Source: Halorubrum sp. BOL3-1 (GTDB lineage Archaea > Halobacteriota > Halobacteria > Halobacteriales > Haloferacaceae). Taken from it: DNA of 64,000 nucleotides. The notes under the pieces are model-generated. The model saw only the letters and a program-made list of their open reading frames with translations, made no database searches and was not told the origin of the DNA. Made by a program: the position numbers and the translations under genes. The DNA lies in assembly GCF_004114375.1 (NCBI RefSeq), contig NZ_CP034692.1, positions 496,001 through 560,000 on the forward strand. The letters run 5' to 3'. Shown in pieces: positions 7,261 to 59,406 of the stretch (the first letter of the stretch is position 1; the number at the start of each line of letters is the position of its first letter).

Positions 7261-7320
7261 GGAGGAAGCGTGGTGACGGGGACATATAATTACGACGCGG
7301 TTACACCGGTTCCTCTCGGT

Positions 7321-9528: not shown

Positions 9529-9598
9529 ACGTCGGGTTCGGTCCGGCGCGACAAAAAGCCGTCACACGAGCCGTCAGCCTCTGTGTCGGCGTGATGAT

Positions 9599-9642
9599 CC
9601 ACAAATGTGGTTAGTCATGTGTGCGCAGAGAGTAAAGTTTAC
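9599..9642. promoter_or_regulatory. Divergent promoter region with two palindromes (DUF255 gene / purD)
   Basis: CCACAAATGTGG at 9599-9610 is two 5-base inverted arms around AA. GTAAAGTTTAC at 9632-9642 has perfect 5-base arms around one G and lies 26-36 bases before the purD ATG, where a BRE/TATA element is expected. The region is clearly AT-rich compared with its flanks. A repressor or activator site is inferred, not shown. Confidence 0.4.
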
Positions 9643-9667
9643 ACTACCGTGCGGGTATCCGTCGGAC

Positions 9668-10951
9668 ATGACGGAGACCGTACTCCTGGTGGGGGGCGGC
9701 GGCCGCGAGCACGCGATCGCCCGCGCAGTGGCGGACGACTGCGCGCTGTACGCCTGCGCGAGCGTCCGGAACCCGGGTATCCGACGGCTCGCGGACGGGT
9801 TCGAGACGGTAAGCGAGACCGACGCCGACGCGGTCGTCGAGTACGCAATCGAGGTCAACGCCGACCTCGCGGTCATCGGTCCGGAGTCGGCGCTGGAAGC
9901 CGGGGTCGCGGACGCGCTCGATTCCGCCGGCGTCTACGCGTTCGGCCCGCGGGCCGAGGAGGCGCGCCTGGAGACCGACAAGGCGTACCAGCGTCGGTTC
10001 ATGGCCGAGGCGTCGATCCCGGGCTGTCCGGACTTCGAGGTATTCGACGACATGGAGGCCGCCTGCGAACACGTCGACGCCTACGACGGCGACCTCGCGG
10101 TCAAGCCCGCCGGACTCACCGGCGGCAAGGGCGTGAAGGTGATCGGCGACCAAGTGACCGCCGAGGAGGCGAAAGACTACCTGCGCGACTCCGACTACGA
10201 CCGCGTCGTCTTGGAGGAGCGGCTCGTCGGAGAGGAGTTCACGGTCCAGGCGTTCGTCGCGAACGGCGACCTGCGGACGACGCCCGCGGTCCAGGACCAC
10301 AAGCGCGCCTACGAGGGCGACGAGGGACCGAACACGGGCGGGATGGGGTCGTACTCGGATCCGGCCCTCGCCCTGCCGTTCATGACCGAGGGCGACTACG
10401 GCGACGCCGTCGAGATCCTGGAGGCGGTCGTCGACGCGCTCCCCGACTACAAGGGGGTCCTCTACGGCCAGTTCATGCTCACCGCCGAGGGACCGAAGAT
10501 CGTCGAGTTCAACGCCCGCTTCGGTGACCCGGAGGCGATGAACGCGCTGCCCGTCCTCCAGACGCCGTTCCTCGACGTGCTGACCGCTGCCCGCGACGGC
10601 GACCCGCTCCCCGAACTCGACTTCTCCGGCGAGGCGACCGTCTGCAAGTACGCGGTGCCCGACGGCTACCCGGTCGACCCGGACTCGGGAGCGCGGATCG
10701 CGGTCGACGAGGAGAGCGCGGGCGACGCGCTGCTCTACTACGCCAGCGTCGACGAACGCGAGGACGGCCTCTACACGACCACCTCGCGGTCGTTCGCGGT
10801 CGTCGGCCGCGGCGACTCGATCGCCGCCGCCGAGACGCGGGCGGAGGACGCGCTCTCGGCCGCGGGCGACGGCCTCCGGATCCGCCACGACGTCGGGAAG
10901 GCCGACCTCGTCGAGCGACGGATCGAGCACATGGACGACCTCCGAGACTGA
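9668..10951 (+). CDS. purD: Phosphoribosylamine-glycine ligase (GAR synthetase)
   Basis: 427 residues from the ATG at 9668. The frame is open further upstream, but MTETVLLVGGGGREHAIARA is the conserved family start. It joins phosphoribosylamine and glycine with ATP, the second step of de novo purine synthesis. The ATP-grasp features are KPAGLTGGKGVKV, LEERLVGEEFTVQAF, NTGGMGSY and VEFNARFGDPE. The length is typical. It is monocistronic here; no other pur gene is nearby. See the palindromic elements upstream for possible control. Confidence 0.96.
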   Translation: MTETVLLVGGGGREHAIARAVADDCALYACASVRNPGIRRLADGFETVSETDADAVVEYAIEVNADLAVIGPESALEAGVADALDSAGVYAFGPRAEEARLETDKAYQRRFMAEASIPGCPDFEVFDDMEAACEHVDAYDGDLAVKPAGLTGGKGVKVIGDQVTAEEAKDYLRDSDYDRVVLEERLVGEEFTVQAFVANGDLRTTPAVQDHKRAYEGDEGPNTGGMGSYSDPALALPFMTEGDYGDAVEILEAVVDALPDYKGVLYGQFMLTAEGPKIVEFNARFGDPEAMNALPVLQTPFLDVLTAARDGDPLPELDFSGEATVCKYAVPDGYPVDPDSGARIAVDEESAGDALLYYASVDEREDGLYTTTSRSFAVVGRGDSIAAAETRAEDALSAAGDGLRIRHDVGKADLVERRIEHMDDLRD

Positions 10952-11012
10952 GCGACTAATCCGACTCCCGACGGCAGCGACCCTTTTATTCCCGCCGTTC
11001 GAACGGTGCGAC

Positions 11013-11630
11013 GTGACCAACGACGACGCGGACGCGACGCGCGACGGCGCGAACGGGACGCGCGGCGACGCGGACGCGACGGGAGACCGTGCGAACGCGA
11101 CGCGCGCCGACACAGACCCCTCGCGCGCCGACCGTCTCGACCGGTTTCAGACGCCGGGACCTCGAAACTCCCTGTGGTCGTGGCCGGACGCGAAGTCGCC
11201 GCTCGCGGTCGTCCGCAACTACGTCGTCATCGTCCTCGCGCGGGTCTGTCCGAGCCTCCGGCTGAAGAACCGGCTGCTTCGGCGGATCGGCGTCACGGTC
11301 GGGACCGGCGTCTCGTGGGGGTTGGAGTCGACGCCCGACGTGTTCTGGCCCGAGCGGATCCGGGTCGACGACGACGCGATAATCGGCTACGACGCCACGC
11401 TGCTGTGCCACGAGTTCCTCACCGAGGAGTACCGGCTCGGTGACGTCGTCGTCGAGGAGGGCGCGATGATCGGCGCGGGGGCGGTCGTCCTCCCCGGCGT
11501 CACGGTCGGTGAGGGCGCGCGCGTCGCCGCGAACTCGCTCGTCGCGGAGGACGTGTCGCCGGGCGCGACCGTCGCGGGCGTCCCCGCTGAGGTCGTCTCG
11601 CGGGCCGACGGGGCCGCGAGCGACGACTAA
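11013..11630 (+). CDS. Hexapeptide-repeat acyltransferase (left-handed beta-helix)
   Basis: 205 residues from a GTG, 24-30 bases after TTTTATT, a good leaderless promoter. Residues 1-45 are low complexity built from repeats of D-A-T/N-A-T-R-A-D and are probably disordered. The body begins at RFQTPGPRNSLWSWPDAKSPL with one amphipathic or membrane-associating stretch (VVRNYVVIVLARVCPSLRLKN). It ends in left-handed beta-helix hexapeptide turns (VVVEEGAMIGAGAVVLPGVTVGEGARVAANSLV) and the typical cap VPAEVVSR. Likely an O-acetyltransferase of sugars or lipids. The acceptor is unknown. Confidence 0.85.
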   Translation: MTNDDADATRDGANGTRGDADATGDRANATRADTDPSRADRLDRFQTPGPRNSLWSWPDAKSPLAVVRNYVVIVLARVCPSLRLKNRLLRRIGVTVGTGVSWGLESTPDVFWPERIRVDDDAIIGYDATLLCHEFLTEEYRLGDVVVEEGAMIGAGAVVLPGVTVGEGARVAANSLVAEDVSPGATVAGVPAEVVSRADGAASDD

Positions 11631-45582: not shown

Positions 45583-45601
45583 CGTTTTCTTCACCCGTTC
45601 T

Positions 45602-45674
45602 GGGCGCGTGGCCTAGCGGACAGGGCGAGAGGTTCCTAACCTCTCGATCGCGGGTTCGAATCCCGTCGCGCCCG
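45602..45674 (+). tRNA. tRNA-Arg (anticodon CCU)
   Basis: 73 bases folding as a standard cloverleaf. The acceptor stem GGGCGCG (45602-45608) pairs with CGCGCCC (45667-45673), with G as discriminator. The anticodon stem GAGAG/CTCTC holds the loop TTCCTAA, giving anticodon CCT, which reads AGG. The T-arm GCGGGTTCGAATCCCGT carries the TTCGA motif. No intron and no encoded CCA. Confidence 0.95.
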
Positions 45675-45678
45675 TTCT

Positions 45679-46486: not shown

Positions 46487-46594
46487 GCCCGACGGTCGGT
46501 GCGCGAGTGACTAAAACCCGCCCGTCAGCGGTCGATTATCAATCTCGGTGTTTTGCCAGACACCTTTTTCAACGGAAACGGCGTTCCCGTAGCT

Positions 46595-49500
46595 ATGAGC
46601 GACGAGGACGCCGAGCGTTCCGCCTCGCGGACCGGCCCGGAAGGCGATGGCTCGGCGTCCGACGCGTCCTCACGCGAGGAGAGCGGCCCGGACGCGGACA
46701 CGGCGGCAGCGGACCCGCCGGATACCGACACGCCGACCGAGACGGCCGTCGACGCGGAGCCGTCGAGCGCGACAGAATCCTCCGGCCCGGCCGGCGACGC
46801 GTTTGAGCCGCCCGAGTTCGGCGGGGGCGACGGATCGGGCGCCGGCCCTCCGGTCGTCACCGACCGCTACACCTGGCGGCCCCTGCTCGCGGATCGGGGG
46901 CACGGAGACGCCGCGGAGTTGGTGTACGCCGACGTCCCGGACGCGCCGGCGGTCCCGGCCGACGCCGTCGCACTCCACCTCCCGACCGGCGTCGACGAGG
47001 TGATCCGGGCTGCCGGCGTCGACGAGCCTTTCGAGGCCGACGGCGAAACCGCCGTTTCCGGCCACGATACTCCCGATCGCGGCACGCTCGTGGTCGGTCC
47101 GGACGCCGTCCTGCTCGACGGTTCGGCCGTCGTGCCGACGGGCGAGCGCATCGCGGTGCCGCCGGAGCGCGCGAGCGACGCCGAGGAGACGGAAGGCGGC
47201 GGCGACGCGGACGCAACCGCCGAGGACGACGAGACCGAGGACGGCGATGAGAGCGAGGACGAGCCGAGACCGGCGGTCGAGGACGAGGAAGACGAGGGCG
47301 AGGCGGTCGAAAGCGGCGATTCCGACGAGAGCGCCGACTCCGACGACGAGGCGGAACCGGACCGCGACGGCGACGACGCCGCCGAGGAACCGTCTTCAAC
47401 TCCCGATCCCAGACCGGACACCGTCTTCGACGACCCCGTCGTCCGTCGCGGCGGCGTCTCCGGAATCGTCGTCGCGCGCGCCGACGGTGTCGAGCCGGTG
47501 CCGTCGCGCGCGCCGACGCCGGAGGAGTGGGACCGAGCCGACGTCGATCCGGCGGACCTCCTCGGATTCGATCCGACCGAGACTGAGTACCGATTTTGCG
47601 CGGCCGCGGCGGTCGGAGACGTCCTCTGGGACCTGTGTGCGGCCCGGTACGACCCCTACTCGGTCCCGGTGTTGAAGGGGTACTACACGTGGGATGACTA
47701 CCGCGACGAGTACTTCCTCGACGAGGAGGGGAACCCGCCGACGGTCGAGAACGAGGATGGAAAAGAGGAGCCGCTCTCGTTCACCCACGAGTACAAGACC
47801 GAGGCGCTCGGCTTCGACCCGGACCGCACCGAAGGACTGCTCGACGCGGGGGAAAGCGCCGCGGCCGACCTCGCGGAGCTCGTCGACGAGCGGACCGTCG
47901 ACGTCAATCCCGAGGTCGACGAGGACGCGTTCTTTTCGACCGCGGAAGGTCACACCACGCTGACGAACCGGTACGACCTGGAGAAGGCGGTGCCGATGGC
48001 GAAAAAGACGCACTTCCGCGAGGAGGAGCGCTACTGGGTGAACAAGCCGTACGCGTTCGTCATCGTCTTCCGGTCGACGAAGGAGAACGAGGTGAAGTAC
48101 TACGCGGTCCAGCCGTACCGGACGGAGATCGAGGCGGACCTCACGGAGTTCCTCACCGGCAAGCTCCGGACGTCGATCAAGTACGCCGACGAGTCGATCG
48201 CGGGCGGCGACGAGGCGTTTCGCGAGGAGGTGATAGTCGAGGAGACGCACTCGCTTTTAGACCGCTACGGAATCTACGAGGACGACGGCGACGAGCGCGG
48301 GATCGCGGACGCGCTGCTCGACCGGTTCGATGTCGACCCGAGCGAGGGAATCGCCCGACGGATCGCGGAGTCGCTGGGGTACGAGCCGGCCGTCGAGTCG
48401 CCCTCGGACCCGCCGAAGATTAGCGCCCGCCCCGAGCCGGCCGTCCTCGCGGAGGACGCCGAGACGCTCTCGGAACACCAGGTCGAGAAGCTGCTGTACT
48501 ACCTCAAACGCGACTTCATCGGCTACGAGCGGATCGACCCGATCAAGTACGACATCAACGTCGAGGACATCTCCTGTGACGGGTACAGCTCCCCCGTCTT
48601 CGTCTACCACTCGGAGTACGAGCAGATAATCACGAACATCCACCACGGCACCGACGAGCTGGACGACTTCGTCGTGAAGCTCGCCCAGCGCTCCGGGAAG
48701 GGCATCTCGAAGCGCAGGCCGCAGGTGGACGCCACCCTCCCGGACGGCTCTCGCGCCCAGCTCACGCTCGGCCGCGAGGTCTCCGACCACGGGACCAACT
48801 ACACGATCCGCCAGTTCAACGACGTCCCGTTCACGCCGATCGACCTGATCAACTGGAAGACGTTCTCGCTCGACGAGATGGCGTTCCTCTGGCTCTCGAT
48901 CGAGAACCACAAGAGCCTGATCTTCGCGGGCGGCACCGCCTCCGGGAAGACGACGAGCCTGAACGCGGTCTCCCTCTTTATCCCCTCGAACGCGAAAATC
49001 GTCTCCATCGAGGACACCCGCGAGGTGGAGCTTCCCCAGCGCAACTGGATCGCCTCGGTCACCCGCCCCTCCTTCTCCGACGACGACAAGGGCGACATCG
49101 ACGAGTTCGACTTACTGGAGGCCGCGCTCCGCCAGCGCCCGGACTACATCGTGATGGGGGAGATCCGCGGCGAGGAGGGGCGGACCGCCTTCCAGGTGAT
49201 GTCGACCGGCCACACCACCTACACTACGTTCCACGCCGACTCCGTGGGCGAGGTGCTCAAGCGGTTCACCACCGACCCGATCAACGTCTCGAAGACGATG
49301 TTCACGGCCCTCGATCTGGTCTCCATCCAGACGTCGACCCGAGTTCAGGGCAAGAAGGTGCGCCGGAACAAGTCGATCACCGAGATCAACCACTACGACG
49401 CCGAGAACGACGAGATCAACGTCCAAGACGTGTTCCAGTGGCAGGCCGAGACGGACGAGTTCCTCCAGATGGGCGACTCGAACACCCTCGAAGACATCAT

Positions 49501-50458
49501 GTTCGACCGCGGCTGGACGCGGGAGCGACTCGACGGGGAACTCCGCAAGCGAAGAGTCGTGTTGGCGTACCTCATCGACCGCGGACTCAACACCTACGCG
49601 CAGGTGGCGGCGACGTTCCAGGCGTTCATCAACGACCCGGAGACCGTCCTCGCGCTGATGGCAAACGACGAGTTGGAGCGCTCGCTGGAGGACCTCCGCG
49701 AGATGGAGTCGGTGCTGATCAACGTCGACCGCGACAAGGAGGCGCTGGTCCCGCGGCCCGAGCCGGACGCCGAGGCCGAATCGGAGGTCGCTGCGATCCT
49801 CGACTCGGCCGAGGACCTGTTCGAGACGTACCGCGGCGAGGTCCCCGACTCGGTCGCCGACGCGCTCCTCGAAATGAACCACGCCCGCGACGTCGAAGCG
49901 CGGCCGACGCGAGACCGCGAGGCCCTCGACGGAACGGCTCGGGAGGCGGACGCGACGGACGCGGACGCGACCGACCCGCCCGCGCCGCCGGAGACGACCG
50001 CCTCCGACCCGGACGCCACGCCGTCAGACTCCTCGGACGCTCCGGCGTCCGATTCCGCTCCGGACGCTCCGTCGCCCGACCCCTCCGTCAGCTCGCCGTC
50101 TACTCCCGCGCGCGACGACTTCGGGGGGACCGCCGAGCCGGACGCGACCGCTGCCGGCGACGGCTCCGGCGATCCGGGCGACATCGACTTCGAGGAGCCG
50201 TTCGACGGGGGGGTCGACGTGCTCTCGTCGCCCGTGGGGCCGCCAGAGCCGGGCGCGGTGCCCGACGTGAGCGAGGGGTTCGACGCTGCCGACCCCGTCG
50301 GGAGCGGCGGTCCCGACGGAACCGCAGTCGACGAGTCGGACGAGTCAGACGAGGAGAAAGCCCCGAGCGGCGACGACACTGAATCAGCCGACGCTGAATC
50401 GGGCGATGACATCGACGACTGGGGGTTCGGTGACGTCGAGCCCGCGGAGGACGGGTGA
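46595..50458 (+). CDS. pilB: Type IV pilus assembly ATPase (PilB/TadA family) with long acidic arms
   Basis: 1287 residues from ATG 46595; a TTG 42 bases upstream is open but weak. The ATPase core lies near residues 690-990: Walker A FAGGTASGKTTSLNAV (about 777-792), IVSIEDTREVELPQRN, and Walker B PDYIVMGEIRGEEGR (about 848-862). The helix-rich N-domain is near residues 340-690. The first 280 residues and last 200 residues are acidic, Asp/Glu/Ser/Pro-rich and probably disordered, making this roughly twice the size of the typical enzyme. It powers pilin polymerisation in the membrane, with the PilC platform encoded just downstream. Confidence 0.92.
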   Translation: MSDEDAERSASRTGPEGDGSASDASSREESGPDADTAAADPPDTDTPTETAVDAEPSSATESSGPAGDAFEPPEFGGGDGSGAGPPVVTDRYTWRPLLADRGHGDAAELVYADVPDAPAVPADAVALHLPTGVDEVIRAAGVDEPFEADGETAVSGHDTPDRGTLVVGPDAVLLDGSAVVPTGERIAVPPERASDAEETEGGGDADATAEDDETEDGDESEDEPRPAVEDEEDEGEAVESGDSDESADSDDEAEPDRDGDDAAEEPSSTPDPRPDTVFDDPVVRRGGVSGIVVARADGVEPVPSRAPTPEEWDRADVDPADLLGFDPTETEYRFCAAAAVGDVLWDLCAARYDPYSVPVLKGYYTWDDYRDEYFLDEEGNPPTVENEDGKEEPLSFTHEYKTEALGFDPDRTEGLLDAGESAAADLAELVDERTVDVNPEVDEDAFFSTAEGHTTLTNRYDLEKAVPMAKKTHFREEERYWVNKPYAFVIVFRSTKENEVKYYAVQPYRTEIEADLTEFLTGKLRTSIKYADESIAGGDEAFREEVIVEETHSLLDRYGIYEDDGDERGIADALLDRFDVDPSEGIARRIAESLGYEPAVESPSDPPKISARPEPAVLAEDAETLSEHQVEKLLYYLKRDFIGYERIDPIKYDINVEDISCDGYSSPVFVYHSEYEQIITNIHHGTDELDDFVVKLAQRSGKGISKRRPQVDATLPDGSRAQLTLGREVSDHGTNYTIRQFNDVPFTPIDLINWKTFSLDEMAFLWLSIENHKSLIFAGGTASGKTTSLNAVSLFIPSNAKIVSIEDTREVELPQRNWIASVTRPSFSDDDKGDIDEFDLLEAALRQRPDYIVMGEIRGEEGRTAFQVMSTGHTTYTTFHADSVGEVLKRFTTDPINVSKTMFTALDLVSIQTSTRVQGKKVRRNKSITEINHYDAENDEINVQDVFQWQAETDEFLQMGDSNTLEDIMFDRGWTRERLDGELRKRRVVLAYLIDRGLNTYAQVAATFQAFINDPETVLALMANDELERSLEDLREMESVLINVDRDKEALVPRPEPDAEAESEVAAILDSAEDLFETYRGEVPDSVADALLEMNHARDVEARPTRDREALDGTAREADATDADATDPPAPPETTASDPDATPSDSSDAPASDSAPDAPSPDPSVSSPSTPARDDFGGTAEPDATAAGDGSGDPGDIDFEEPFDGGVDVLSSPVGPPEPGAVPDVSEGFDAADPVGSGGPDGTAVDESDESDEEKAPSGDDTESADAESGDDIDDWGFGDVEPAEDG

Positions 50459-50485: not shown

Positions 50486-52525
50486 GTGAGCGTCGATATG
50501 GACGCCGGCGACGGCGGTCTCGACGCGAACGTCCTCGCAGAGCTGTGTTACCCGGCGTTCGAGCTGCTGTTCGACCCCGACGGCGACTTCGTGGGCGATG
50601 TCGAGCGCAAGCTCGTCGAGGCGCGGATGCCGGACCAGGTCGAGATGTACGTCTCGCTGGCGCTCGGCGTCGGTCTGCTGGTCGGCGGGGCGCTCTGGGC
50701 GCTCGGCACGTTTGTCGGCTACGGCGTGTTCTCGCTCGGGCTGATCGACCCCGAGGCGCTCTCGCTCGGTGTTCCGGCCCCGACGCCGGGTGTTCAGGCG
50801 CTGCTCCGGTCGCTCGTCGTCCCGACCGCGGTGCTTCTCAGCGGGCTCGTCTTCGGTTCGATCGGGTTCGCACTCGGGTTCGGCGGTCTCCTCGCGGTCC
50901 CGTACTCCCGGGCGTCGTCGCGGAAACGGGAAATAAACCTCCTGCTCGCGGACTCCGTCTCGTTCATGTACGCCCTCTCCGTCGGGGGACTCAACCAGCT
51001 CGAGATCCTCCGCGCGATGGCGGCCGCCGAGGACACCTACGACGAGGTGTCCCGCGAGTTCCAGAGTATCGTCAACGAGACCGAGTACTTCGGCACCGAC
51101 TACCGCAACGCGATCCGTCAGCAGTCGCTTGAGACCCCCTCAGACGAGCTCTCGCAGTTCCTCGCGGACATGCTCTCTATCGTCAACTCCGGCGGCGACA
51201 TGGAGAGCTTCCTGAAGGACAAAAAGGAGAAACACCTCCGTACGTCGAAACAGGAGCGCGAGATGACCCTAGAGACCTTAGAGCTGTTCGGTGAGATGTA
51301 CATGACGCTCTCCTTATTCCCCCTCCTCCTCATCATCATCCTCGTCATCATGGGGATGATGGGCGAGGCCGACGACCGCCTGCTGTACGCGACCGTCTAC
51401 GTTCTCATCCCGCTGGTGGGCGTCGGCTTCCTCGTCCTGGTCTCGACGGTGAAACAGGACGAGCCGGGCGACGGCTACCTCCAGCCCGACGGGGGAAGCG
51501 AGCGGCTCCGACAGACGAGTCAGGAGGGGCTGTTCCACTTCGGGCTGGTGGAGGCGTTCACCGGGGCGTTCGGCGTCTTCGACCGCATCCGCGACCGCGA
51601 AGGGACGTACAAGACGATGGAGATCCTCTCCGCGCCGCACGTCTTCTTGCGCGAGAACCCGCTATACACCCTCGCGTTGACCGTTCCCTCTGCGCTCGCG
51701 CTCGTCGGTGTCGCGGCCGCGGCCGGCTCGGCCCCGACGACGCTCGACGGGTGGATCGCCCGCCCGGTGTGGTCGGCGTTCGTCTGGGTTTACGTCCCCG
51801 TCTACGCCGTGTTGATCCCGCTCGGGGTCTTCTACGAGTGGCACCAGCGCTCGCGGCGGGCGGTGACGGGAAAGCTTTCCGAGACGCTCCGGAAGCTCTC
51901 CTCCGCGAACGACACCGGCCAGACGCTGCTCGAATCCGTCCGCACGGTCTCGGACACTTCGACCGGGAAACTCTCGGAGGAGTTCGAGGTCGTTCACGCG
52001 AAGGTGAACTACGGCATGAGCCTTCGGGACGCCCTGGTCGAGTTCAACAACGCCTACGCGGTGCCGCGGCTCGCGCGGACGGTGAAGCTCATCACGGAGG
52101 CACAGGAGGCCTCCTCGCAGATCACGGACGTGCTGACGACGGCCGCCCAGGCCTCGGAGAACCAGGACGACATCGAGCGCGAGCGGAAGTCTCGGACCCG
52201 GATGCAGGTGGCGATCATCGTGATGACGTACGTCACGCTGCTCGGCGTGATGGCAATCCTCCAGACGCAGTTCATCGACGTGATGGGCGATCTGGTCTCA
52301 CAGAGCGGGGGCGGCGGCGGCAGCGCGGGTGGGGCGGGGTTCGGCGGCGGCGGCAGCATCGACCCCGACGTCCTCTCGATGCTGTTCTTCCACGCGGTGA
52401 CGATCCAGGCGATCCTCTCGGGGTTCATCAGCGGCTACATCCGCGACGCGGAACTGGTCTCTGGCGTCAAGTTCGCCGTAATCCTGATGACGCTCGCATT
52501 GGGGGTGTGGATCTATGTCGGGTGA
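50486..52525 (+). CDS. pilC: Type IV pilus membrane platform protein (PilC/TadC, two T2SSF domains)
   Basis: 679 residues from GTG 50486; ATG 50498 is the alternative. Two T2SSF units are present: the first around residues 150-300 (ADSVSFMYALSVGGLNQLEILRAMA, SNYRNA, DMLSIVNSGGDMESFLKDKK, then a helix pair EMYMTLSLFPLLLIIILVIMG), the second around 420-600 (LRKLSSANDTGQTLLESVRTVSD, GMSLRDALVEFNNAYAVPRLARTVKLI). Each ends in a hydrophobic helix set. A Gly-rich loop (SGGGGGSAGGAGFGGGGS) precedes the last helices. This is the membrane anchor of the pilus machine and partner of the ATPase; 27 bases separate the genes. Confidence 0.92.
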   Translation: MSVDMDAGDGGLDANVLAELCYPAFELLFDPDGDFVGDVERKLVEARMPDQVEMYVSLALGVGLLVGGALWALGTFVGYGVFSLGLIDPEALSLGVPAPTPGVQALLRSLVVPTAVLLSGLVFGSIGFALGFGGLLAVPYSRASSRKREINLLLADSVSFMYALSVGGLNQLEILRAMAAAEDTYDEVSREFQSIVNETEYFGTDYRNAIRQQSLETPSDELSQFLADMLSIVNSGGDMESFLKDKKEKHLRTSKQEREMTLETLELFGEMYMTLSLFPLLLIIILVIMGMMGEADDRLLYATVYVLIPLVGVGFLVLVSTVKQDEPGDGYLQPDGGSERLRQTSQEGLFHFGLVEAFTGAFGVFDRIRDREGTYKTMEILSAPHVFLRENPLYTLALTVPSALALVGVAAAAGSAPTTLDGWIARPVWSAFVWVYVPVYAVLIPLGVFYEWHQRSRRAVTGKLSETLRKLSSANDTGQTLLESVRTVSDTSTGKLSEEFEVVHAKVNYGMSLRDALVEFNNAYAVPRLARTVKLITEAQEASSQITDVLTTAAQASENQDDIERERKSRTRMQVAIIVMTYVTLLGVMAILQTQFIDVMGDLVSQSGGGGGSAGGAGFGGGGSIDPDVLSMLFFHAVTIQAILSGFISGYIRDAELVSGVKFAVILMTLALGVWIYVG

Positions 52526-52560
52526 CTGCGCGCAGACGGTCCTCAACTTCGTCGTCGCTC

Positions 52561-52614
52561 CAGCTCCTTTGATTTAGTGCCCTACCTCGCTGCTGTATGG
52601 CGATTCAACACAGC
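52561..52614. repeat. Left copy of 54-bp direct repeat flanking pilin cassette
   Basis: 54 bases, 36 after the pilC stop. Compared with 58069-58122 on the same strand, 46 of 54 positions match, the differences being mostly C/T and A/G. The shared core is CTCGCTGCTG then CGATTCAACACAGC. See the right copy. Confidence 0.8.
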
Positions 52615-52824
52615 CACGAGAGCGTGGACAGAATTTATTAAAAATGATAATTTAAAGGCGGCTTTTATATATCGGCTTTGTCTCAATATCAGGTAATGTT
52701 CTGTTTCGTACGGAATCGCTCTCCTCAAAGCCTGTCCTCTGCCCGGTCGAACTCAGATGTATAATAGTATCGACTATCCCACGGAACGCATACTCTCTCC
52801 GTAACTATCGTAAGGTAATCCGAA
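52615..52824 (+). promoter_or_regulatory. AT-rich promoter region of the pilin operon
   Basis: 210 bases with no gene. It is strikingly AT-rich (for example TTATTAAAAATGATAATTTA at 52636-52655) compared with everything before it. TATA-like elements are TTTTATATAT (52663-52672) and TGTATAATAG (52758-52767); the second lies about 60 bases before the GTG at 52825. Either could drive the five-gene operon. Confidence 0.5.
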
Positions 52825-53304
52825 GTGACACCACCTCGCCCATCGAAGCGACTCACGTCGGATCGTCGCGGCCAGACGCTCCAAGACTACGTCATCGGGG
52901 TGTCGATATTTCTCCTCACGACTGCGTTCGTCGTGGGGTTCATTCCGACTCTCTTCACACCGTTTACAGCGCCTGTCGACGCTTCACAGACCGCACAGGC
53001 CGACAGGTACGCCGCCGAAGTGCTCTCGGAGGTCACCCAACCCGATTCGAAGAACGCACTCGCCGGCGCTGAAACGGATTCGTTTTTCGCGAATGAGTCG
53101 AATTTGGACGGAATACCGACGGCCGAACAGAGCGACGTGAACGTGACGCTCGTGGACGGAAACGGGACGGTCCAACAGACGGTCGGCCCACCGTATCAGA
53201 GTGAGTCCACGGCCGCTGCGACACGCGTCGTCGTCCCGGAGTCGGGCTACGTAGGTAACTACACCTGTACGGCCACCTGTCGTATCGAGGTGCGACTATG
53301 GTAG
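52825..53304 (+). CDS. Pilin-like protein 1 (pilus cassette)
   Basis: 159 residues from GTG 52825. Basic head MTPPRPSKRLTSDRRGQTLQ, then a hydrophobic segment DYVIGVSIFLLTTAFVVGFIP (residues about 21-42) followed by an extracellular domain. RGQ before the hydrophobic core is the class III signal-peptide style of archaeal pilins, although Q-T-L-Q-D-Y differs from the usual cleavage context, so cleavage is not assured. Two Cys (CTATC) near the end may bond. Overlaps the next gene by 7 bases. Likely a minor or assembly pilin subunit. Confidence 0.8.
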   Translation: MTPPRPSKRLTSDRRGQTLQDYVIGVSIFLLTTAFVVGFIPTLFTPFTAPVDASQTAQADRYAAEVLSEVTQPDSKNALAGAETDSFFANESNLDGIPTAEQSDVNVTLVDGNGTVQQTVGPPYQSESTAAATRVVVPESGYVGNYTCTATCRIEVRLW

Positions 53305-53924
53305 CCAGTCCGCCGAAACGGCGACCACCGTCCGACGTGGATCGCGGGCAAGCGTACACTCTCGAAGGTGTTATTTCCGCGGTCGTGATCCTCACAGCGC
53401 TACTGTTAGCGACGACTGCAGTGGTGATTACGCCCACCACGGCCGGAACGATCGATCGGGAAACGATGGCACAGTTGGGGACGCAGACAGACGACGTTCT
53501 CGCGACTGCTCACGAGCGGGACGCGCTTCGTGAAGCCGCACTGTATTGGGACTCCCAAGATCGACAATCGGGGTGGCCGACCGCGTACCAGCCCGGCGAT
53601 GCCTGCCCCGAAACGATAGCGGACGAGCCGCTCACGCTGTGCCTTCTCCTCGAAGAGACGTTCACTTCCCGGTTCTATCGGTACAACGTCTATCTGGATT
53701 ATCAGACGCAGGGGAAGACGACGGAGACGGAGCCGCTGTTCGTCCAAGGGACCCCCGGTCGAAACGCGGTCACCGCGACCCGTTCGATAGCGCTTCACGA
53801 CGGGATGGAGTTGACACACAGTCCCGGCGGTACCCTCGGAGGGAACGCCTCGAAGTTCTACGCCGAGGACCTCGACGACCCGACGCTGGTGAACGTGGTC
53901 GAAGTACGGGTGGTCGTCTGGTGA
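53298..53924 (+). CDS. Pilin-like protein 2 (pilus cassette)
   Basis: 208 residues. Head MVASPPKRRPPSDVDRGQAYTLEG, then hydrophobic VISAVVILTALLLATTAVVI (about 25-44). The DRGQAYTLEGVISAV motif resembles the class III signal of archaeal pilins. The soluble part has two Cys (CPETI and LTLCLLL) and an aromatic-rich region (RFYRYNVYLDYQTQ). The stop overlaps the next gene's GTG (GTGA). Same transcript as its neighbours. Confidence 0.8.
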   Translation: MVASPPKRRPPSDVDRGQAYTLEGVISAVVILTALLLATTAVVITPTTAGTIDRETMAQLGTQTDDVLATAHERDALREAALYWDSQDRQSGWPTAYQPGDACPETIADEPLTLCLLLEETFTSRFYRYNVYLDYQTQGKTTETEPLFVQGTPGRNAVTATRSIALHDGMELTHSPGGTLGGNASKFYAEDLDDPTLVNVVEVRVVVW

Positions 53925-54844
53925 TCCTGAAGCTCGACGACCGCGGTCAACTGATGCTCGTGGGGGCGGTCGTGATGGCGGCGAGTCTATTGGCACTCGT
54001 CGTCGTGCTGAACTCTACGATCTACACCCAAAACACCAACCCCGGAAATTCTCTCGGGGACATAAACGAGGTAGAGCGACAGTTGGAAGTCATTCGAACG
54101 GACATCGACCGCCTCACCGACCGACTTGGACAACGAGACCGCTACGTCGACATCCACGTATTAAACGCGACGTTGACCGTTTACAGCGATCGGAAGGCGG
54201 AGCAGATCGTCGACCGGCGGTCGGCGTATCTCGATGTGACGCTGAACGAGAGCGCGTCCGATCTCAAAAGAGAGGTTCTTCGGCAGAGCAACCCCTCGCG
54301 AGCCGTCCTCTCGCGGTCGAACCAAAGCGACTGGACCCTCGTGGAGAACGCAACGTTCAACGAATCCACCCCGTTTGAGCTCGTCATTGAACCGCGGAGC
54401 CCGACGCCGACGACGTTCATCGCCGAGGGCGAGGACGGCGGTGATTGGCGTCTCAACGTTAGCCGAGGCCCATCGAATACCGTCAGCGTCAATGTCACGT
54501 ACGACAACGGAACCACGGTCAGCGAGTCGGTCTCGGGGAGCGCGACTCGGGTGAACGTCACTGGCGGAGCGATCAACGGAACCCAGCGCTTCGCGTTCGC
54601 TCCGCGACTGGACGCCCCGTACGACCTTCGTGTGAAAAACGGTCACCGGTCCGACGGTGCGTATCATATCCTCATCGACGAGGCCAGCGACATCGATACC
54701 GGGAACTTCCACACCGACCCGAGTGACGGTCAGCCGTACGTCAGCCGCGAACTGTCGACCGCTGTCGTCGATGTCGAATACGTGAGCGACAAAGTGTCCG
54801 CGGAGTCGCAAATCACGGTCCAGATCGAGGGAGATTCGGAATGA
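53921..54844 (+). CDS. Pilin-like protein 3 (pilus cassette)
   Basis: 307 residues from GTG 53921 (MILKLDDRGQLMLVGAV), set by the GTGA overlap with the previous stop. The frame is open further upstream, but that part is antisense to gene 2. Hydrophobic LMLVGAVVMAASLLALVVVLNSTIY begins at about residue 10. The extracellular domain is long and Asn/Thr/Ser-rich, with many N-x-S/T sites (for example LNATLTV, LVENATFNEST, NVTGGAINGT), so glycosylation is likely on export. The stop overlaps the next start (ATGA). Confidence 0.82.
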   Translation: MILKLDDRGQLMLVGAVVMAASLLALVVVLNSTIYTQNTNPGNSLGDINEVERQLEVIRTDIDRLTDRLGQRDRYVDIHVLNATLTVYSDRKAEQIVDRRSAYLDVTLNESASDLKREVLRQSNPSRAVLSRSNQSDWTLVENATFNESTPFELVIEPRSPTPTTFIAEGEDGGDWRLNVSRGPSNTVSVNVTYDNGTTVSESVSGSATRVNVTGGAINGTQRFAFAPRLDAPYDLRVKNGHRSDGAYHILIDEASDIDTGNFHTDPSDGQPYVSRELSTAVVDVEYVSDKVSAESQITVQIEGDSE

Positions 54845-55326
54845 AAGGTCTCGGTGTAACAGACCGGCTTCGGGGCGACCGGCGGGGGGTCTCGGTCGCG
54901 TTGACACACGTACTCACGATGGGGATTACCTCCGTGCTGATCGCCGGGCTCATCATCACTGCGGGCGGCGCGGTCGAGACGCAACGCGAGCGGGCAGTAG
55001 AGGGCGAGCTCACGACAATCGGAGAACGGATTGGGACCGAACTCACGGCACTGGACCGTGTCGCCGACTCGACGAACTCGACGATGACCGTCGAGACGTC
55101 ACATCCCGAGCGGGTCGTGAATTCACGCTATCGAGTGCGACTGACATCGAATTACAGAGACTGTCGGACGGATGCCTGCCTCGTGCTCGAATCGCGGGCG
55201 ATCGAAACCCCGGTCGTGATCCCCGTCCGTGACGACATCGACACCGTCGAGTCGACCGCCTTCGGAGGGGAGATCAGACTCGTTCACAGCGGGACCGCGG
55301 TCCGCGTGGAGCGTGCGCAACCATGA
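54841..55326 (+). CDS. Pilin-like protein 4 (pilus cassette)
   Basis: 161 residues. Head MKGLGVTDRLRGDRRGVSVALTHV, then hydrophobic LTMGITSVLIAGLIITAGG (about 24-43), followed by a helix VETQRERAVEGELTTIGERIGTELTALDRVADS. Two Cys (RDCRTDACLV) could form a loop. DRRGVSVALTHVL is a plausible class III type signal. Start overlaps the previous stop by ATGA, and the same holds for the next gene. Confidence 0.8.
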   Translation: MKGLGVTDRLRGDRRGVSVALTHVLTMGITSVLIAGLIITAGGAVETQRERAVEGELTTIGERIGTELTALDRVADSTNSTMTVETSHPERVVNSRYRVRLTSNYRDCRTDACLVLESRAIETPVVIPVRDDIDTVESTAFGGEIRLVHSGTAVRVERAQP

Positions 55327-56078
55327 CTGCGAACGAGCGCGCCGTAAGCGATATGGTCGGATTCGTCCTCTCGTTTTCACTCATCCTACTCGCTGTCAGC
55401 GCCGTGTACACCGGCGGATTCGCCGCTATCACCGAGCAACAACAGGAGGAACAGATAGACAACACCGAGCGCGCGATGTCGGTGTTCGCGGAGAACTTTC
55501 GCGATATCGAGCGGGGAAACGCGCCGACACGGGCGGGCGAGTTCCGACTCTCAGGAGGCACGCTATCACTGGACCGCACCGCGAGATTCACCGTGTCTAT
55601 TGGACTCGATAACGGGACGTTCGCGGAGACCGTCCGAACTGGGTCACTCTCGTACACGAAAGACGAGAACGAGATAAGCTACGAGAACGGAGCGGTCCTA
55701 CGGACGAACGACGAATACGGATTCGTGTCACACTCACCGACCGTGACGTGTCGAGAGGGGAAGGCGATCATCTCGTTGGTCGAGATCGGTCCGCGCGGTA
55801 ACGTCACGTCGACGAGTGCGGACGGATCGGTACTGGTCACGGTCGCGAAGCAGGACTCCGGTATATACTACCCGACGCGGGAAAACGGGACCGTCGTCAA
55901 TGAGGCCGACGTGGCTCGAAACGTGACGATCCGGGTTGAGGAGTCACGTCACGAGAAAGCTTGGGAAAGGTGGTTCGCCGAACGCGAGGGATGGAACCAG
56001 ACGGCAGCGGGCTACACGTGCGAGGCTGATACCGTATTCGTTCGGACGACCAAGGTGACGGTTAGGTTCCTGTCATAA
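55323..56078 (+). CDS. Pilin-like protein 5 (pilus cassette)
   Basis: 251 residues. The N-terminus MTANERAVSDMVGFVLSFSLILLAVSAVYTGGF is the clearest class III signal in the operon (ERAVSDMVGFVLSF), with the hydrophobic core from about residue 12 to 30. The helix ITEQQQEEQIDNTERAMSVFAENFRDIERGNAPTR follows. The C-terminal domain is beta-rich, with three Cys (TVTCREG, YTCEAD). Last gene of the operon; convergent with the sixth pilin-like gene, whose stop is 71 bases away. Confidence 0.82.
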   Translation: MTANERAVSDMVGFVLSFSLILLAVSAVYTGGFAAITEQQQEEQIDNTERAMSVFAENFRDIERGNAPTRAGEFRLSGGTLSLDRTARFTVSIGLDNGTFAETVRTGSLSYTKDENEISYENGAVLRTNDEYGFVSHSPTVTCREGKAIISLVEIGPRGNVTSTSADGSVLVTVAKQDSGIYYPTRENGTVVNEADVARNVTIRVEESRHEKAWERWFAEREGWNQTAAGYTCEADTVFVRTTKVTVRFLS

Positions 56079-56149
56079 CAGGTCCCTGACGGCAAGCCCC
56101 GGTTGAGACCGAGACGATCGGCTCGATTTCGATCAGCTAAGCGATTCGC

Positions 56150-57661
56150 TCACTCGTCGGAGCTCTCGATGATGACCTCGTTCGTCGTCAGTCTGATCTC
56201 GAACCCACCGGCGACCTCCTTGCCCTCCTGGTCCTCTATCTCCAACAGGACGATGGCGTCGTTGTAATTGGGATCGCCGATACCGTCTGTCGCGCTCTCC
56301 CACGTAGCGTCCGGGTCGGTGATCTCGAAGAGGAACACCACTTCGTTGTCCTCAAGCTGTAGGTATCCTGTCTCGTTGAGCAGCGGGCCGAGAACTTCTT
56401 CGGCGTTGCGTTGCCGGTACTTCGTCTCTATCACTGGCATCTCGTCGCCGTTCTTGAGCACTCTGACGTTCTCCGGATTCTCACCCGCCGACGCGTCTGT
56501 ACGGAGATTCACCGAGCCGAGATTGTCGCAGTTGTAGTGATTCCACGTTGCTCCGTCGTACGTGTCTGCCCCGGCGTAGTCGTAATCGGCACACGACCAC
56601 TGCGTCGCTCGGATCGACACTGTCGCTCCCGCCTCGACTTCGAACTCGTGAGTCCACTCGGAGAGTTGGGTCTCTCGGTCGTTGAGGTTCTGCTCGGCGG
56701 TGACGGGATCACCGGGATTGTACGGTCCGTCGGGCCACGGCCGCATCTGTTCGTCGTCGGTCACGACTCCCATCGTAACCGGGGCCCAGTCTTTTCGCAT
56801 GCCACCCAACCAGGTGGGTGTCTGCCTAGACACCTCCGTCCCCAAGACCGTCGTCGAGACAGTCGCGTTCTCCGAGACGCTGATCTCACTTTCATTGCCC
56901 CCGACGCCGAAGTCCACCCCTTCGGAGATCGTTACCGTCACCGAGTCGTCGTCGGGATCGGCGTTGTCGAGGTCGTACGTCGAATTCGTCGAGACTTCAC
57001 TTTCGAGGTATTTGCCCCACACATTGGCGTAGCGGCTCTCGACGGTAACGGTCATCTGCGACGCGTTCGAGCAGTTCGCCATCAGTTGGGAGTACTCGCG
57101 AGAGCGTTCACGAGAGTATTCGAGGTTCTTCGTTGCTTGGAGCCTCTCCACCTGTCCGCCGGCGCTGCCGTTGATGTTCACGGACGGGAACGTCAGCGTT
57201 CCATCCTTGTACTGCATATCGGGAGGCGAGATCATCTCGTTGCCACTCGGCGTCTCTTTCCAGATCCCACCGCCCTGATAGGTGACAGTCGAGTGACCGT
57301 CGCTCTCGTAATGAAGCGATCCCATCGGAATCACGAACGGGTTACAGTTCGGGCCGCCGTCGAGTTCGATCATCATCTCCGCGTTGTCGGCGATGCGTAC
57401 TGATTGCCCCTCTCTGGGGTCGAAAGCGAGCGTGTGTTTGAGGTTGTCGCTGAACGCGACCTCACTCAGCCGGGAGTCAACCTCCCGCATCGTCTGTTCC
57501 GCGTCTTGCCCCTGAATTTCGCCCCTGAGGTCACCCGTCATGGCCGTTCCGAAGTGGAGGGTCATCGACGCTGCTACGAGAATTATCCCGATCAACAGGA
57601 CGAACCCGATGAGGTTCGATTGCCCTCGTCCCTGTCTTCGAGGTGTCGTGGACGGTGTCAT
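56150..57661 (-). CDS. Large pilin-like surface protein (pilus cassette, opposite strand)
   Basis: 503 residues. Head MTPSTTPRRQGRGQSNLIGFVLLIGIILVAASMTLHFG is an archaeal class III signal: GRGQSNLIGFVLLIG, cut after GRGQ in related pilins. The remaining 460 residues are acidic and extracellular, with many N-x-S/T sites (NINGS, NCSNAS, NSTYD, NESEISVSENATV) and Cys pairs (CSN, WSCADYDY, NCDNLG). It is much bigger than ordinary pilins, so it may be a tip adhesin or a pilin-anchored surface protein. It carries its own upstream AT-rich region (57662-57780). Confidence 0.8.
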   Translation of the reverse strand: MTPSTTPRRQGRGQSNLIGFVLLIGIILVAASMTLHFGTAMTGDLRGEIQGQDAEQTMREVDSRLSEVAFSDNLKHTLAFDPREGQSVRIADNAEMMIELDGGPNCNPFVIPMGSLHYESDGHSTVTYQGGGIWKETPSGNEMISPPDMQYKDGTLTFPSVNINGSAGGQVERLQATKNLEYSRERSREYSQLMANCSNASQMTVTVESRYANVWGKYLESEVSTNSTYDLDNADPDDDSVTVTISEGVDFGVGGNESEISVSENATVSTTVLGTEVSRQTPTWLGGMRKDWAPVTMGVVTDDEQMRPWPDGPYNPGDPVTAEQNLNDRETQLSEWTHEFEVEAGATVSIRATQWSCADYDYAGADTYDGATWNHYNCDNLGSVNLRTDASAGENPENVRVLKNGDEMPVIETKYRQRNAEEVLGPLLNETGYLQLEDNEVVFLFEITDPDATWESATDGIGDPNYNDAIVLLEIEDQEGKEVAGGFEIRLTTNEVIIESSDE

Positions 57662-57784
57662 GAGTATTCGCGACGGAGCAACATCAAGTGCCCCGGCAGG
57701 CTGCTGCTAACACGTCGTCGATCTGAAAGTGATAACCTTTTGGTCAAAGTATTGGTTATGATAATCACCACTGGCGATTAAGCC

Positions 57785-57886
57785 TCAGTAGCTTGTGAAG
57801 ATCGGGTACACGACGGCAGTCTCGCGGTCCGAACGCCCGATCCCCCCGGTTATTTGTGGCATCTCTTTGAGCGGGTCGATCGTCAT
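57785..57886 (-). CDS. Possible 33-residue small protein
   Basis: Reads MTIDPLKEMPQITGGIGRSD followed by RETAVVYPIFTSY, with a stop codon upstream in frame. The codon pattern is protein-like, and the piece is too short for a usual gene finder. It may be a fragment of a longer gene that has decayed, like its neighbours. No known family. Confidence 0.25.
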   Translation of the reverse strand: MTIDPLKEMPQITGGIGRSDRETAVVYPIFTSY

Positions 57887-58056
57887 GCGGTACGACGTAT
57901 CGAACTAAATCCGGAGACAATGGAGGAAACAAGTGCGTAGTCGGCGAGTCCCCCGCCACCGTCCGGGGCGGCGGATTCGCTTCCATCGCCAGTAACTCTT
58001 CGAGCAACCGGCACAACTACCCGATGAAGTGGGAGGTTTGGGTCATGAGAAATTGA
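57871..58056 (+). pseudogene. C-terminal fragment of an unrecognised protein
   Basis: No start codon, preceded by a stop at 57868. The 61-residue tail includes GDNGGNKCVVGESPATVRGG, then GFASIASNSSSNRHNYPMK and the end WEVWVMRN. Ser/Asn-rich, codon use normal for the region. It reads like the C-terminal end of a secreted or surface protein whose N-terminus is missing. The stop lies only 12 bases before the right copy of the 54-bp repeat. Confidence 0.4.
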
Positions 58057-58069
58057 AGTCTCCCGCTTC
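58026..58069. repeat. Hairpin overlapping the edge of the right repeat
   Basis: GAAGTGGGAG (58026-58035) and CTCCCGCTTC (58060-58069) pair over 10 bases with one G-U, loop 24 bases. It touches the first base of the 54-bp repeat. Hairpins of this type mark the ends of IS200/IS605-type elements, but no transposase is nearby, so this is a hint only. Confidence 0.45.
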
Positions 58070-58122
58070 AACTCCTTCGATTTAGCCGCCCACCTCGCTG
58101 CTGCATAGCGATTCAACACAGC
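58069..58122. repeat. Right copy of 54-bp direct repeat flanking pilin cassette
   Basis: Same orientation as the copy at 52561-52614, 46 of 54 identical, 5.5 kb apart. The block between holds all six pilin-like genes and nothing else recognisable. The copy ends in GATTCAACACAGC followed by AGTTC; a short internal dyad CTGCTG...CAGCAG is present. Confidence 0.8.
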
Positions 58123-58204
58123 AGTTCAGAGACATGAGGCTCCCGACTCTCCCGCCGCAGACTTGACGGTGGCGGGTAACGCCACCCGGACGTGAGACGA
58201 CCGG

Positions 58205-58345
58205 GTGACGGTCGACCCCGGTTCGCTGTTGGACTCCGCGTCGGGCGCGTTCACCGTCACCGCCGACGGGGCGGTCAACGGGTCCAACGAGACGCGGTCA
58301 GCGTTGCTGTTCCGCGCGCCCGGCGACGACCTCCCCGTGCGGGTC
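58205..58345 (+). pseudogene. Protein-like fragment without a sensible end
   Basis: From GTG 58205: DPGSLLDSASGAFTVTADG then AVNGSNETRSALLFRAPGDD look like part of a beta-rich surface protein. After VRVV it turns into the antisense of the pilin remnant below, and a stop precedes the GTG. Treated as a relic. Confidence 0.35.
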
Positions 58346-58474
58346 GTTCGTCGAGACGGGGCGCGAGCGCGCGGCGCCGCCGAGCGCGACCGTGGTGCCG
58401 ACGACGGCGACGGTGAGCCCCAACAGCAGCACGGTGCCGAGCACCTCGCTCTGCGCGCGCTCTCTCCCTAACAC
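58298..58474 (-). pseudogene. Truncated archaeal pilin (N-terminus only)
   Basis: From GTG 58474 the protein begins MLGRERAQSEVLGTVLLLGL then TVAVVGTTVALGGAA. ERAQSEVLG is a textbook class III prepilin signal with hydrophobic core after the Q. It then degenerates (RSRPVSTNDPHGEV) and stops at 58298, giving 58 residues where a normal pilin has 100 or more. The ATG at 58501 is an alternative start. Evidence that a further pilin gene was broken at this boundary. Confidence 0.6.
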
Positions 58475-58582
58475 GACGCCGCGTACGGCGAGCGCACACA
58501 TAAACGTGGACTCCCGGCTATCGAGCCTGAGATCTGGGCGGGCGGACGCGAGCGAACTCCCGACGCCGGACCGCGGCCGATC

Positions 58583-58589
58583 GATATAT
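58583..58589 (+). promoter_or_regulatory. TATA box of the AlaX gene
   Basis: GATATAT lies 26-32 bases before GTG 58615 and decides the start there rather than at the overlapping ATG 58588. Confidence 0.55.
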
Positions 58590-58614
58590 GCTCGGGGCGC
58601 ACCTTCTCACACCC

Positions 58615-59406
58615 GTGACCGAGCAACTCCACCTGGACGACGACTCCGTGACGACGTTCGACGCGACGGTCGAGCGCGTCCTCTCGGACCCGCCCCGGGT
58701 CGTCCTCGACCGGACGCACTTCTACCCGACCGGCGGCGGCCAGCCCCACGACACGGGCAGGCTTCGAGCGCGCGACGGCGACCGCGCCTGGCGAGTGACC
58801 GACGTCGAGAAGCGAGACACCGTGTATCACGCGCTCGGGCCGGTCGAGGGTGCGGACGGGGACGGAGCGCCGCCGGACCCGCCCGAACCCGGTACGGCGG
58901 TGCGAGGCGAGATCGACGCCGACCGCCGCGCGGCGCACTCGCGGTACCACACCGCACAGCACCTGCTGTCGGCGCTGCTGCTCGCGGAGTTCGACGCGTC
59001 GACGACCGGCAACCAGCTGTACCGCGATCGCGCGCGGCTCGACGCCGCCTACGACCGGTTCACGGACGCCGACCTCGACCGGATCGAGACCCGACTCAAC
59101 GAGCTCGTCGCCGGCGCGCGCCCGGTGTCGAGCTACACGATGGACCGCGAGACCGCGGAGGCGACGCTCGACGCGGACCGGACGCGGATCGACCTCCTCC
59201 CCGACTCGATCGAGGAGCTCCGGATCGTCGAGGTCGCCGGCGCGAGCGAGGGCGACGAGCCGTACGACCGGACCGCCTGTGCCGGAACCCACGTCGCGAA
59301 CACGGCCGACATCGGTGAGGTCGTCGTCACGGGCCGGGAGACGAAAGGCCCCGACGAGGAGCGCGTGCGGTTCGCGCTCGCAGAGCACGTCGACGGCGGC
59401 GAGTAA
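58615..59406 (+). CDS. Alanyl-tRNA editing protein AlaX-like
   Basis: 263 residues. Removes serine or glycine wrongly attached to tRNA-Ala. The zinc-binding motifs HTAQHLLSALL (HxxxH) and CAGTHVANT (CxxxH) are intact, and the editing-domain start VVLDRTHFYPTGGGQPHDTG matches that of alanyl-tRNA synthetase editing domains. The length fits AlaX-M. The acidic insert (residues about 85-105) is haloarchaeal. Just to the right of the pilin island, so likely the first normal genome gene after it. Confidence 0.92.
   Translation: MTEQLHLDDDSVTTFDATVERVLSDPPRVVLDRTHFYPTGGGQPHDTGRLRARDGDRAWRVTDVEKRDTVYHALGPVEGADGDGAPPDPPEPGTAVRGEIDADRRAAHSRYHTAQHLLSALLLAEFDASTTGNQLYRDRARLDAAYDRFTDADLDRIETRLNELVAGARPVSSYTMDRETAEATLDADRTRIDLLPDSIEELRIVEVAGASEGDEPYDRTACAGTHVANTADIGEVVVTGRETKGPDEERVRFALAEHVDGGE

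What the first reader, a model, noticed from the sequence alone, without database searches (positions are those of the whole stretch)
52561..58122. Pilin cassette bracketed by 54-bp direct repeats
Two copies of the same 54-bp sequence (46/54 identical, same orientation) lie 36 bases after pilC and about 0.5 kb before the next sound gene. Between them are six pilin-like genes only, in DNA visibly less GC-rich than the motor genes on the left and the AlaX gene on the right. Recombination between the repeats could delete or swap the whole set of pilins while leaving the motor untouched. This would be a surface-structure exchange system and explains why pilins differ far more than motors between strains.
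Basis: partly seen in the sequence, partly recalled or inferred. Interest (0 to 1): 0.75.

Follow-up and report, generated by a model that had tools for sequence, protein, structure and literature searches.

The report
Swapped pilin gene set with IS scars
In this salt-loving archaeon (Halorubrum) the whole six-gene set for the fibre proteins of a surface pilus has been replaced by a distantly related set while the motor genes beside it stayed; the repeated 54-base sequence at the borders is the leftover end of a jumping gene, and swaps at this same chromosomal spot were already reported in one Halorubrum species in 2024.

Summary
The repeat is real (46/54; shuffled maximum 32) and brackets six pilin-like genes. 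It is not a dedicated exchange site: both copies are the same terminus of an IS5-family insertion sequence, present as intact 940-bp copies elsewhere in the genome. The right copy is a ~290-bp decayed IS end; the left is 60 bp.

The cassette swap is real. In 39 relatives whose pilC-pilin junction could be read, the first pilin gene overlaps the pilC stop. Here that native gene is cut to 14 codons, the native reverse-strand pilin survives only as a 5' stub, and a six-gene set about 30-40% identical to the native one sits between, although PilC is up to 95% identical to relatives. Two other Halorubrum (ezzemoulense DSM 17463, sp. Atlit-26R) carry the same foreign set; Hrr. coriense holds it as a motor-less extra copy beside an intact native set. 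Carriers are not a clade in the motor tree (AU p=0.0004).

This is a "homeocassette"; the same locus was described in Hrr. ezzemoulense (mBio 2024, PMC11078007). New here: spread across species, IS scars, native-gene stubs, orphan copy. Recombination between IS copies fits the border anatomy but is inferred; the surviving repeats are probably relics.

The parts
46553..50458 (+). pilB, pilus assembly ATPase (motor; native, not swapped)
   Evidence: Pfam T2SSE 7.6e-31, PilB3_C 5.5e-9; 80-82% aa to the other carriers over the conserved part
50486..52525 (+). pilC, membrane anchor (motor; native, not swapped)
   Evidence: Pfam T2SSF 1e-27; 92-95% aa to near relatives
52515..52556 (+). stub of the NATIVE first pilin gene (DUF7287): 14 codons MSGDCAQTVLNFVV, overlapping the pilC stop as in all relatives, then cut by IS sequence
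   Evidence: tblastn with native p1 of relatives, 12/14 identical, E 2.6e-4; alignment; 11-bp pilC/p1 overlap in 39 of 39 relatives
52556..52615 (-). left border: IS5-family terminus, IS nt 60-1 (first copy of the 54-bp repeat)
   Evidence: blastn to the intact 940-bp IS, 88% over 60
52616..52824 (+). AT-rich leader with a TATA-like TTTATATA at 52664; putative own promoter of the cassette
   Evidence: sequence; shared with Atlit-26R (81%) and ezzemoulense (76%)
52825..53304 (+). foreign pilin p1 (DUF7287)
   Evidence: Pfam 2.8e-35; 93-97% aa to carriers, 35-40% to native p1 of the near relatives
53298..53924 (+). foreign pilin p2 (DUF7288)
   Evidence: Pfam 3.4e-49
53921..54844 (+). foreign pilin p3 (DUF7261)
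   Evidence: Pfam 1.3e-8
54841..55326 (+). foreign pilin p4 (DUF7266)
   Evidence: Pfam 2e-17
55323..56078 (+). foreign pilin p5 (DUF7289)
   Evidence: Pfam 3e-50; 93% to ezzemoulense, 78% to coriense orphan, at most about 40% elsewhere
56150..57661 (-). foreign pilin-like p6 (DUF7289 N-terminal part, 503 aa)
   Evidence: Pfam 1.7e-22; found at E<=1e-60 in only 3 of 52 genus genomes
57837..58122 (-). right border: decayed IS5-family 5' end, IS nt 289-2, with frame-broken transposase codons (second copy of the 54-bp repeat lies in it); similarity may run on to about 57805
   Evidence: blastn 84% over 289, tblastn of transposase residues 21-73 at 83-87%; alignment
58189..58309 (-). possible remnant of the NATIVE p6 3' part
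   Evidence: weak tblastn matches to native p6 C-terminal region, E 0.004-0.02; 26-bp blastn match
58343..58462 (-). stub of the NATIVE reverse pilin p6: ERAQSEVLGTVLLLGLTVAVVGTTVALGGAA and a few more codons
   Evidence: tblastn E 1e-13 to 1e-37 to native p6 of relatives; DNA 58369-58700 is 85.6% to the p6 start and upstream of G045
58588..59406 (+). AlaX-like editing protein, right flanking core gene (not swapped)
   Evidence: Pfam tRNA-synt_2c and tRNA_SAD; 77-90% aa to relatives

Best explanation
The region is a replaced pilin set (homeocassette). Shown: the native six-gene pilin block that follows pilBC throughout the genus has been removed except for two stubs, and a complete foreign six-gene block of the same gene order now lies between the stubs. 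The block is bordered on both sides by the same terminus of an IS5-family IS in the same orientation. Inferred: an IS5 element inside the native block (with IS-linked deletion) and an IS5 copy beside the incoming cassette gave the homology for a crossover. That yields p1 stub | IS end | cassette | IS end | p6 stub, with the truncated side of the left IS facing the native stub and the truncated side of the right IS facing the cassette. The block then reached several Halorubrum species at this locus by homologous recombination, and the IS ends have decayed. Functionally the resident PilB-PilC motor would now assemble a pilus from different subunits, probably changing adhesion or virus and mating recognition; function was not tested. 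Confidence by step: replacement in place about 0.95; IS-IS crossover as its cause about 0.45; later spread between species about 0.7.
For: Synteny pilB-pilC-p1..p5-(p6)-AlaX across the genus, with window pilins only about 30-40% identical to those of relatives whose PilC is 92-95% identical. Native p1 and p6 stubs at the borders; p1 overlaps the pilC stop by 11 bp in 39 of 39 native loci but starts 300 bp after it here. Same foreign block beside AlaX in ezzemoulense and between pilC and AlaX in Atlit-26R, each with remnants of the same IS terminus; Atlit-26R and ezzemoulense share one deletion in the right IS. In G011 and G000 a single p5 locus is found, in G008 two (native plus orphan). Motor tree: the three carriers are not one clade (AU p=0.00045), each next to a species with the native set. 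Pooled 4-fold-site identity among carriers: cassette 87-92%, flanks 71-75%, Fisher p<=7e-14. Cassette GC3 70-77% against 80-95% in most native pilins. Foreign pilins group with other genera rather than Halorubrum types A and B (SH-aLRT 97; one-clade test p=0.042). IS identity: IS5 family transposase 1.9e-69, terminal inverted repeats and an 8-bp target duplication read at an intact copy.
Against: Non-coding borders (leader, p6 upstream, IS remnants) differ by 8-25% between carriers, about as much as alignable flanking spacers though with almost no gaps. The junctions may therefore be old, and recent transfer is shown only for the coding block. The first-generation junction (two full IS copies, or one IS in an empty site) was not found. 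IS ends at both borders could also be later insertions. The left border of ezzemoulense is not assembled. The foreign origin outside the genus rests on a marginal test.
Confidence: 0.75

Rival explanations
1. Ancient trans-species polymorphism: the foreign set entered the pilC locus once, in an ancestor of this Halorubrum clade. Both types then segregated through speciation, and coding parts were later evened out by recombination between carriers.
For: Carriers share the same overall junction; border non-coding sequence is 75-92% identical between carriers, not far from flank divergence; each carrier's p1 stub looks like its own lineage's native p1 (MSGDCAQ against MSDDRGQ); the 2024 study argues for long-term coexistence of both islands (PMC11078007).
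Against: 4-fold sites of the coding block are far closer than those of the flanks; no native relative has IS at the locus; few gaps in cassette non-coding DNA compared with flanks.
Confidence: 0.25
2. Composite transposon: two IS5 copies carried the cassette between them as cargo, transposed into the native pilin locus, and the native genes were lost afterwards.
For: Two IS ends of the same orientation flank the block.
Against: Landing exactly between the first and last cognate pilin genes is unlikely for transposition but expected for homology-driven exchange; no full IS, no outer terminus on the left and no target duplication remain; the coriense orphan copy has no IS5 ends.
Confidence: 0.12
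3. Dedicated exchange system: the 54-bp repeats are site-specific or preferred recombination sites that still swap pilin sets.
For: Same repeat at both borders; sets do differ between relatives.
Against: The repeat is an IS terminus present at many unrelated sites; absent from 40 other pilC loci of the genus although sets differ there too, e.g. G003 and G046/G015; in Atlit-26R the two remnants share no sequence; no integrase or recombinase among the genes of the block.
Confidence: 0.04
4. No exchange: the pilins simply evolved fast in place.
For: Pilins do evolve faster than PilC in native sets.
Against: Native stubs remain beside the complete foreign block; the same foreign set occurs in scattered lineages and as an extra copy in coriense.
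Confidence: 0.02

Closest known systems
Homeocassette Islands 25 + 26 of Halorubrum ezzemoulense (mBio 2024, PMC11078007)
   Same: Same locus (between tadC = pilC and alanyl-tRNA ligase = AlaX), type 4 pilus genes, mutually exclusive islands with homologous but strongly divergent genes, 6-7 ORFs; reported average GC 65.3% lies between the native (67-71%) and foreign (61%) sets here.
   Different: That work compared strains of one species and proposed recombination in the conserved flanks. Here: several species, an IS5 terminus at both borders, native-gene stubs, and an orphan copy elsewhere in coriense. Which of Islands 25/26 equals the present foreign set was not checked.
Divergent segments / deletion-coupled insertions of Halobacterium and Haloquadratum (as cited in PMC11078007)
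   Same: Divergent homologous segments in equivalent genome positions between close strains.
   Different: Other genes (S-layer and others), other species.
Replacement flexible genomic islands, e.g. cell-wall island GI1 of Haloquadratum walsbyi (PMC4535781)
   Same: Surface-structure genes exchanged by homologous recombination, with IS elements contributing.
   Different: Larger islands, different content; here a compact one-for-one swap of six homologous genes.
Modular PilB-pilin evolution in haloarchaea (PMC6491452, citing Makarova et al. 2016)
   Different: There paralogous motors or deep evolution and experiments in Haloferax; here a genus-level swap in place, without experiment.

Membership tests
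[quoted passage not shown]
   pilC and AlaX/TFS flank all sets in the clade
Homeocassette (PMC11078007) | At least half of the genes have divergent homologs on the opposing island | tested here: met
   six of six genes, about 30-40% aa identity
Homeocassette (PMC11078007) | Mutually exclusive at the locus | tested here: met
   each locus read has one set; coriense carries the second set at another site
Homeocassette (PMC11078007) | Both islands coexist among strains of one species with nearly identical core neighbours | not testable with these tools
   only one genome per species held; reported for ezzemoulense in the paper
IS5-family IS (border sequence) | DDE transposase of the IS5 family | tested here: met
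   intact copy: NF033579 transpos_IS5_2 1.9e-69, above its cut-off
IS5-family IS (border sequence) | Terminal inverted repeats and target-site duplication | tested here: met
   intact copy L021 starts GGCTGTGTTGAATCGC and ends GCGATTCAACACAGCC, with 8-bp duplication CACTAGGT outside (read from sequence); not preserved at the window's remnants
Composite transposon | Two complete or functional IS copies flanking cargo, with an outer target duplication | tested here: not met
   only 60-bp and ~290-bp remnants, no outer left terminus
Site-specific recombination cassette or integrative element | Recombinase gene and attachment-site repeats, often at a tRNA | tested here: not met
   no recombinase among the genes between the borders; the only tRNA in the window is at 45601-45675

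The most novel reading that the evidence does not exclude
A motor-less six-pilin module acts as a mobile surface-type cassette: it moves between Halorubrum species and between loci (orphan reserve copy in coriense, replacement in three others) by recombination at IS5 copies, and works in trans with any resident PilB-PilC motor.
Probability: 0.2. Interest if true: 0.62.

Novelty: new member of a known kind. Interest (0 to 1): 0.42.

Why it matters
It gives a sequence-level footprint (native stubs plus IS ends) of how one homeocassette replaced another, something the 2024 description explained only by recombination in the flanks, and shows the same pilin set next to different motors in several species. 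It makes a concrete test possible: whether one PilB-PilC motor assembles unrelated pilin sets, and whether such swaps change adhesion, mating or virus attachment.

Tried and rejected
Active recombination at the 54-bp repeat: rejected (IS terminus; decayed differently in each carrier). Composite transposon: disfavoured (no full IS, no outer duplication, cognate landing site). tRNA or integrase island: no tRNA at the borders and no recombinase in the block. Rfam scan of 46-64 kb: nothing. Viral contigs with p2: none. Plasmids with p6: only 24-33% partial matches. rpoB tree: first run spoilt by mixed strand; corrected run poorly resolved, G000+G011 as a pair not rejected (p=0.058), so the motor tree carries the argument. 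AlphaFold of p6 from a 4-row alignment: pLDDT 28, useless. A pilB search failed on the server. The pilC gene of ezzemoulense looked broken at its contig end; the tail resembles sequencing adapter, so it was not interpreted. Equal truncation of both IS copies near IS nt 330 was considered as proof of a single duplicated IS, but decay makes the end points uncertain by about 10 nt.
Full report
WHAT WAS CHECKED. The repeat pair is real: 46/54 identical, extending to 59 nt at 85%, against a maximum of 32/54 in 300 resampled controls. Positions relative to pilC and AlaX are as stated. The six genes match haloarchaeal families DUF7287, 7288, 7261, 7266, 7289 and a DUF7289-like reverse gene. Block GC is 60.4%, pilC 65.8% and AlaX 72.8%; GC3 is 70-77% against 90-92% in pilB, pilC and AlaX.

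WHAT THE REPEAT IS. A search of the window's own genome found about ten further good matches. Reading them showed intact 940-bp elements with GGCTGTGTTGAATCGC at the ends, an apparent 8-bp target duplication and a 278-aa IS5-family transposase; several copies are 100% identical. The window's right copy is the first ~289 nt of this IS, reverse strand, 84% identical, with broken transposase codons; the left copy is only nt 60-1, 88%. The repeat is therefore an IS scar, not a specific site. It is absent from 40 other pilC loci of the genus.

THE SWAP. 40 regions from related genomes were fetched. Gene order pilB-pilC-p1-p2-p3-p4-p5-(p6 reverse)-AlaX-TFS is conserved, with p6 lacking in many type-B loci. 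PilC of the window is 92-95% identical to the near clade, AlaX 80-90%, but the pilins only about 30-40%. In all 39 native loci that could be read, p1 starts 11 bp inside the end of pilC; in the window the next pilin starts 300 bp after it. The lost native p1 is still there as a 14-codon stub running into the IS. On the right, after the IS end, lies the start of the native p6 (ERAQSEVLGTVLLLGLTVAVVGTTVALGGAA, reverse strand; tblastn to 1e-37; DNA 58369-58700 85.6% to G045). So the native block was removed between p1 codon 14 and somewhere in p6, and a complete foreign block now fills the gap.

OTHER CARRIERS. Among 170 genomes of the family only G000, G011 and G008 carry close p5 homologs; a class-wide sample of 391 genomes added none above about 40%. 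Atlit-26R and ezzemoulense share one deletion inside the right IS. coriense keeps a normal native set at pilC and has the foreign set (78% DNA) elsewhere, without motor genes, in a 54-62% GC stretch with TnpB-type genes. The left border of ezzemoulense is not assembled.

HISTORY. In a pilC tree of 41 loci the three carriers sit in three places, each next to a native-set species (window+G045, Atlit+G022, ezzemoulense+G039); one clade is rejected (AU p=0.00045). The tree also shows G003 with a type-B-clade motor but type-A pilins, so holding all type A and C motors together is rejected (p=0.0005): another likely swap, without IS. 4-fold-site identity among carriers is 87-92% in the cassette and 71-75% in the flanks. 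Non-coding borders are less clear: 75-92% between carriers with almost no gaps, against 77-87% with many gaps in flanking spacers. I read this as spread across species with old junctions; an old trans-species polymorphism is not excluded. With other genera included, the foreign set groups with non-Halorubrum sets (SH-aLRT 97, one-clade test p=0.042), so it probably came from outside the genus; no donor was found.

MECHANISM. The orientation is informative: native p1 stub | IS (truncated side outwards, terminus towards cassette) | cassette | IS (truncated side towards cassette, terminus outwards) | native p6 stub. This is what a single crossover between an IS in the recipient and an IS next to the cassette would leave. 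It is inference; no intermediate was found. At present the repeats are poor substrates: 60 bp at 83% in the window, no overlap at all in Atlit-26R. Expression may come from the leader (TATA-like element at 52664), since the cassette is no longer coupled to pilC; untested.

KNOWN WORK. PMC11078007 (mBio 2024) described homeocassettes in Hrr. [quoted passage not shown] That is this locus. Its reported mean GC (65.3%) is what one would expect from averaging a ~61% and a ~69% set, but island identity was not checked directly. [quoted passage not shown]

VERDICT. Observation confirmed; interpretation partly supported: cassette exchange yes, repeats as the exchange system no. New member of a known kind with a useful footprint.

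Noticed in passing
L028 (G046) and L029 (G015), pilin block: Native p1-p3 are 99.6-99.8% identical in DNA between two species whose pilC is 95% and whose p5 and p6 are only 72-74% identical: a recent half-cassette exchange without IS.
   Followed up: partly
L067 (G003): Type-A pilins beside a motor of the type-B clade; holding all A/C motors together is rejected, suggesting another whole-set swap with intact pilC-p1 overlap.
   Followed up: partly
L069 (coriense C61) 6605-11606: Motor-less second copy of the foreign pilin set in a low-GC stretch with several TnpB-like genes, while the native set is intact at pilC.
   Followed up: partly
L070 9937-10000 (G011 contig C11 end): The last ~65 bases after pilC resemble read-through of a sequencing adapter (CTGTCTCTT... 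ATCTGCTT), so the apparent pilC truncation in ezzemoulense DSM 17463 is probably an assembly artefact.
   Followed up: no
G000 C4:23549, C4:101550, C4:140261, C3:2945521, C3:3183059: Several 100%-identical intact copies of the 940-bp IS5-family element in the chromosome and the second largest contig: recently active.
   Followed up: no
L046, L048, L049, L051, L056, L057, L063 and others: Reverse-strand pilin p6 seems to be missing in many type-B loci, where AlaX follows p5 directly.
   Followed up: no
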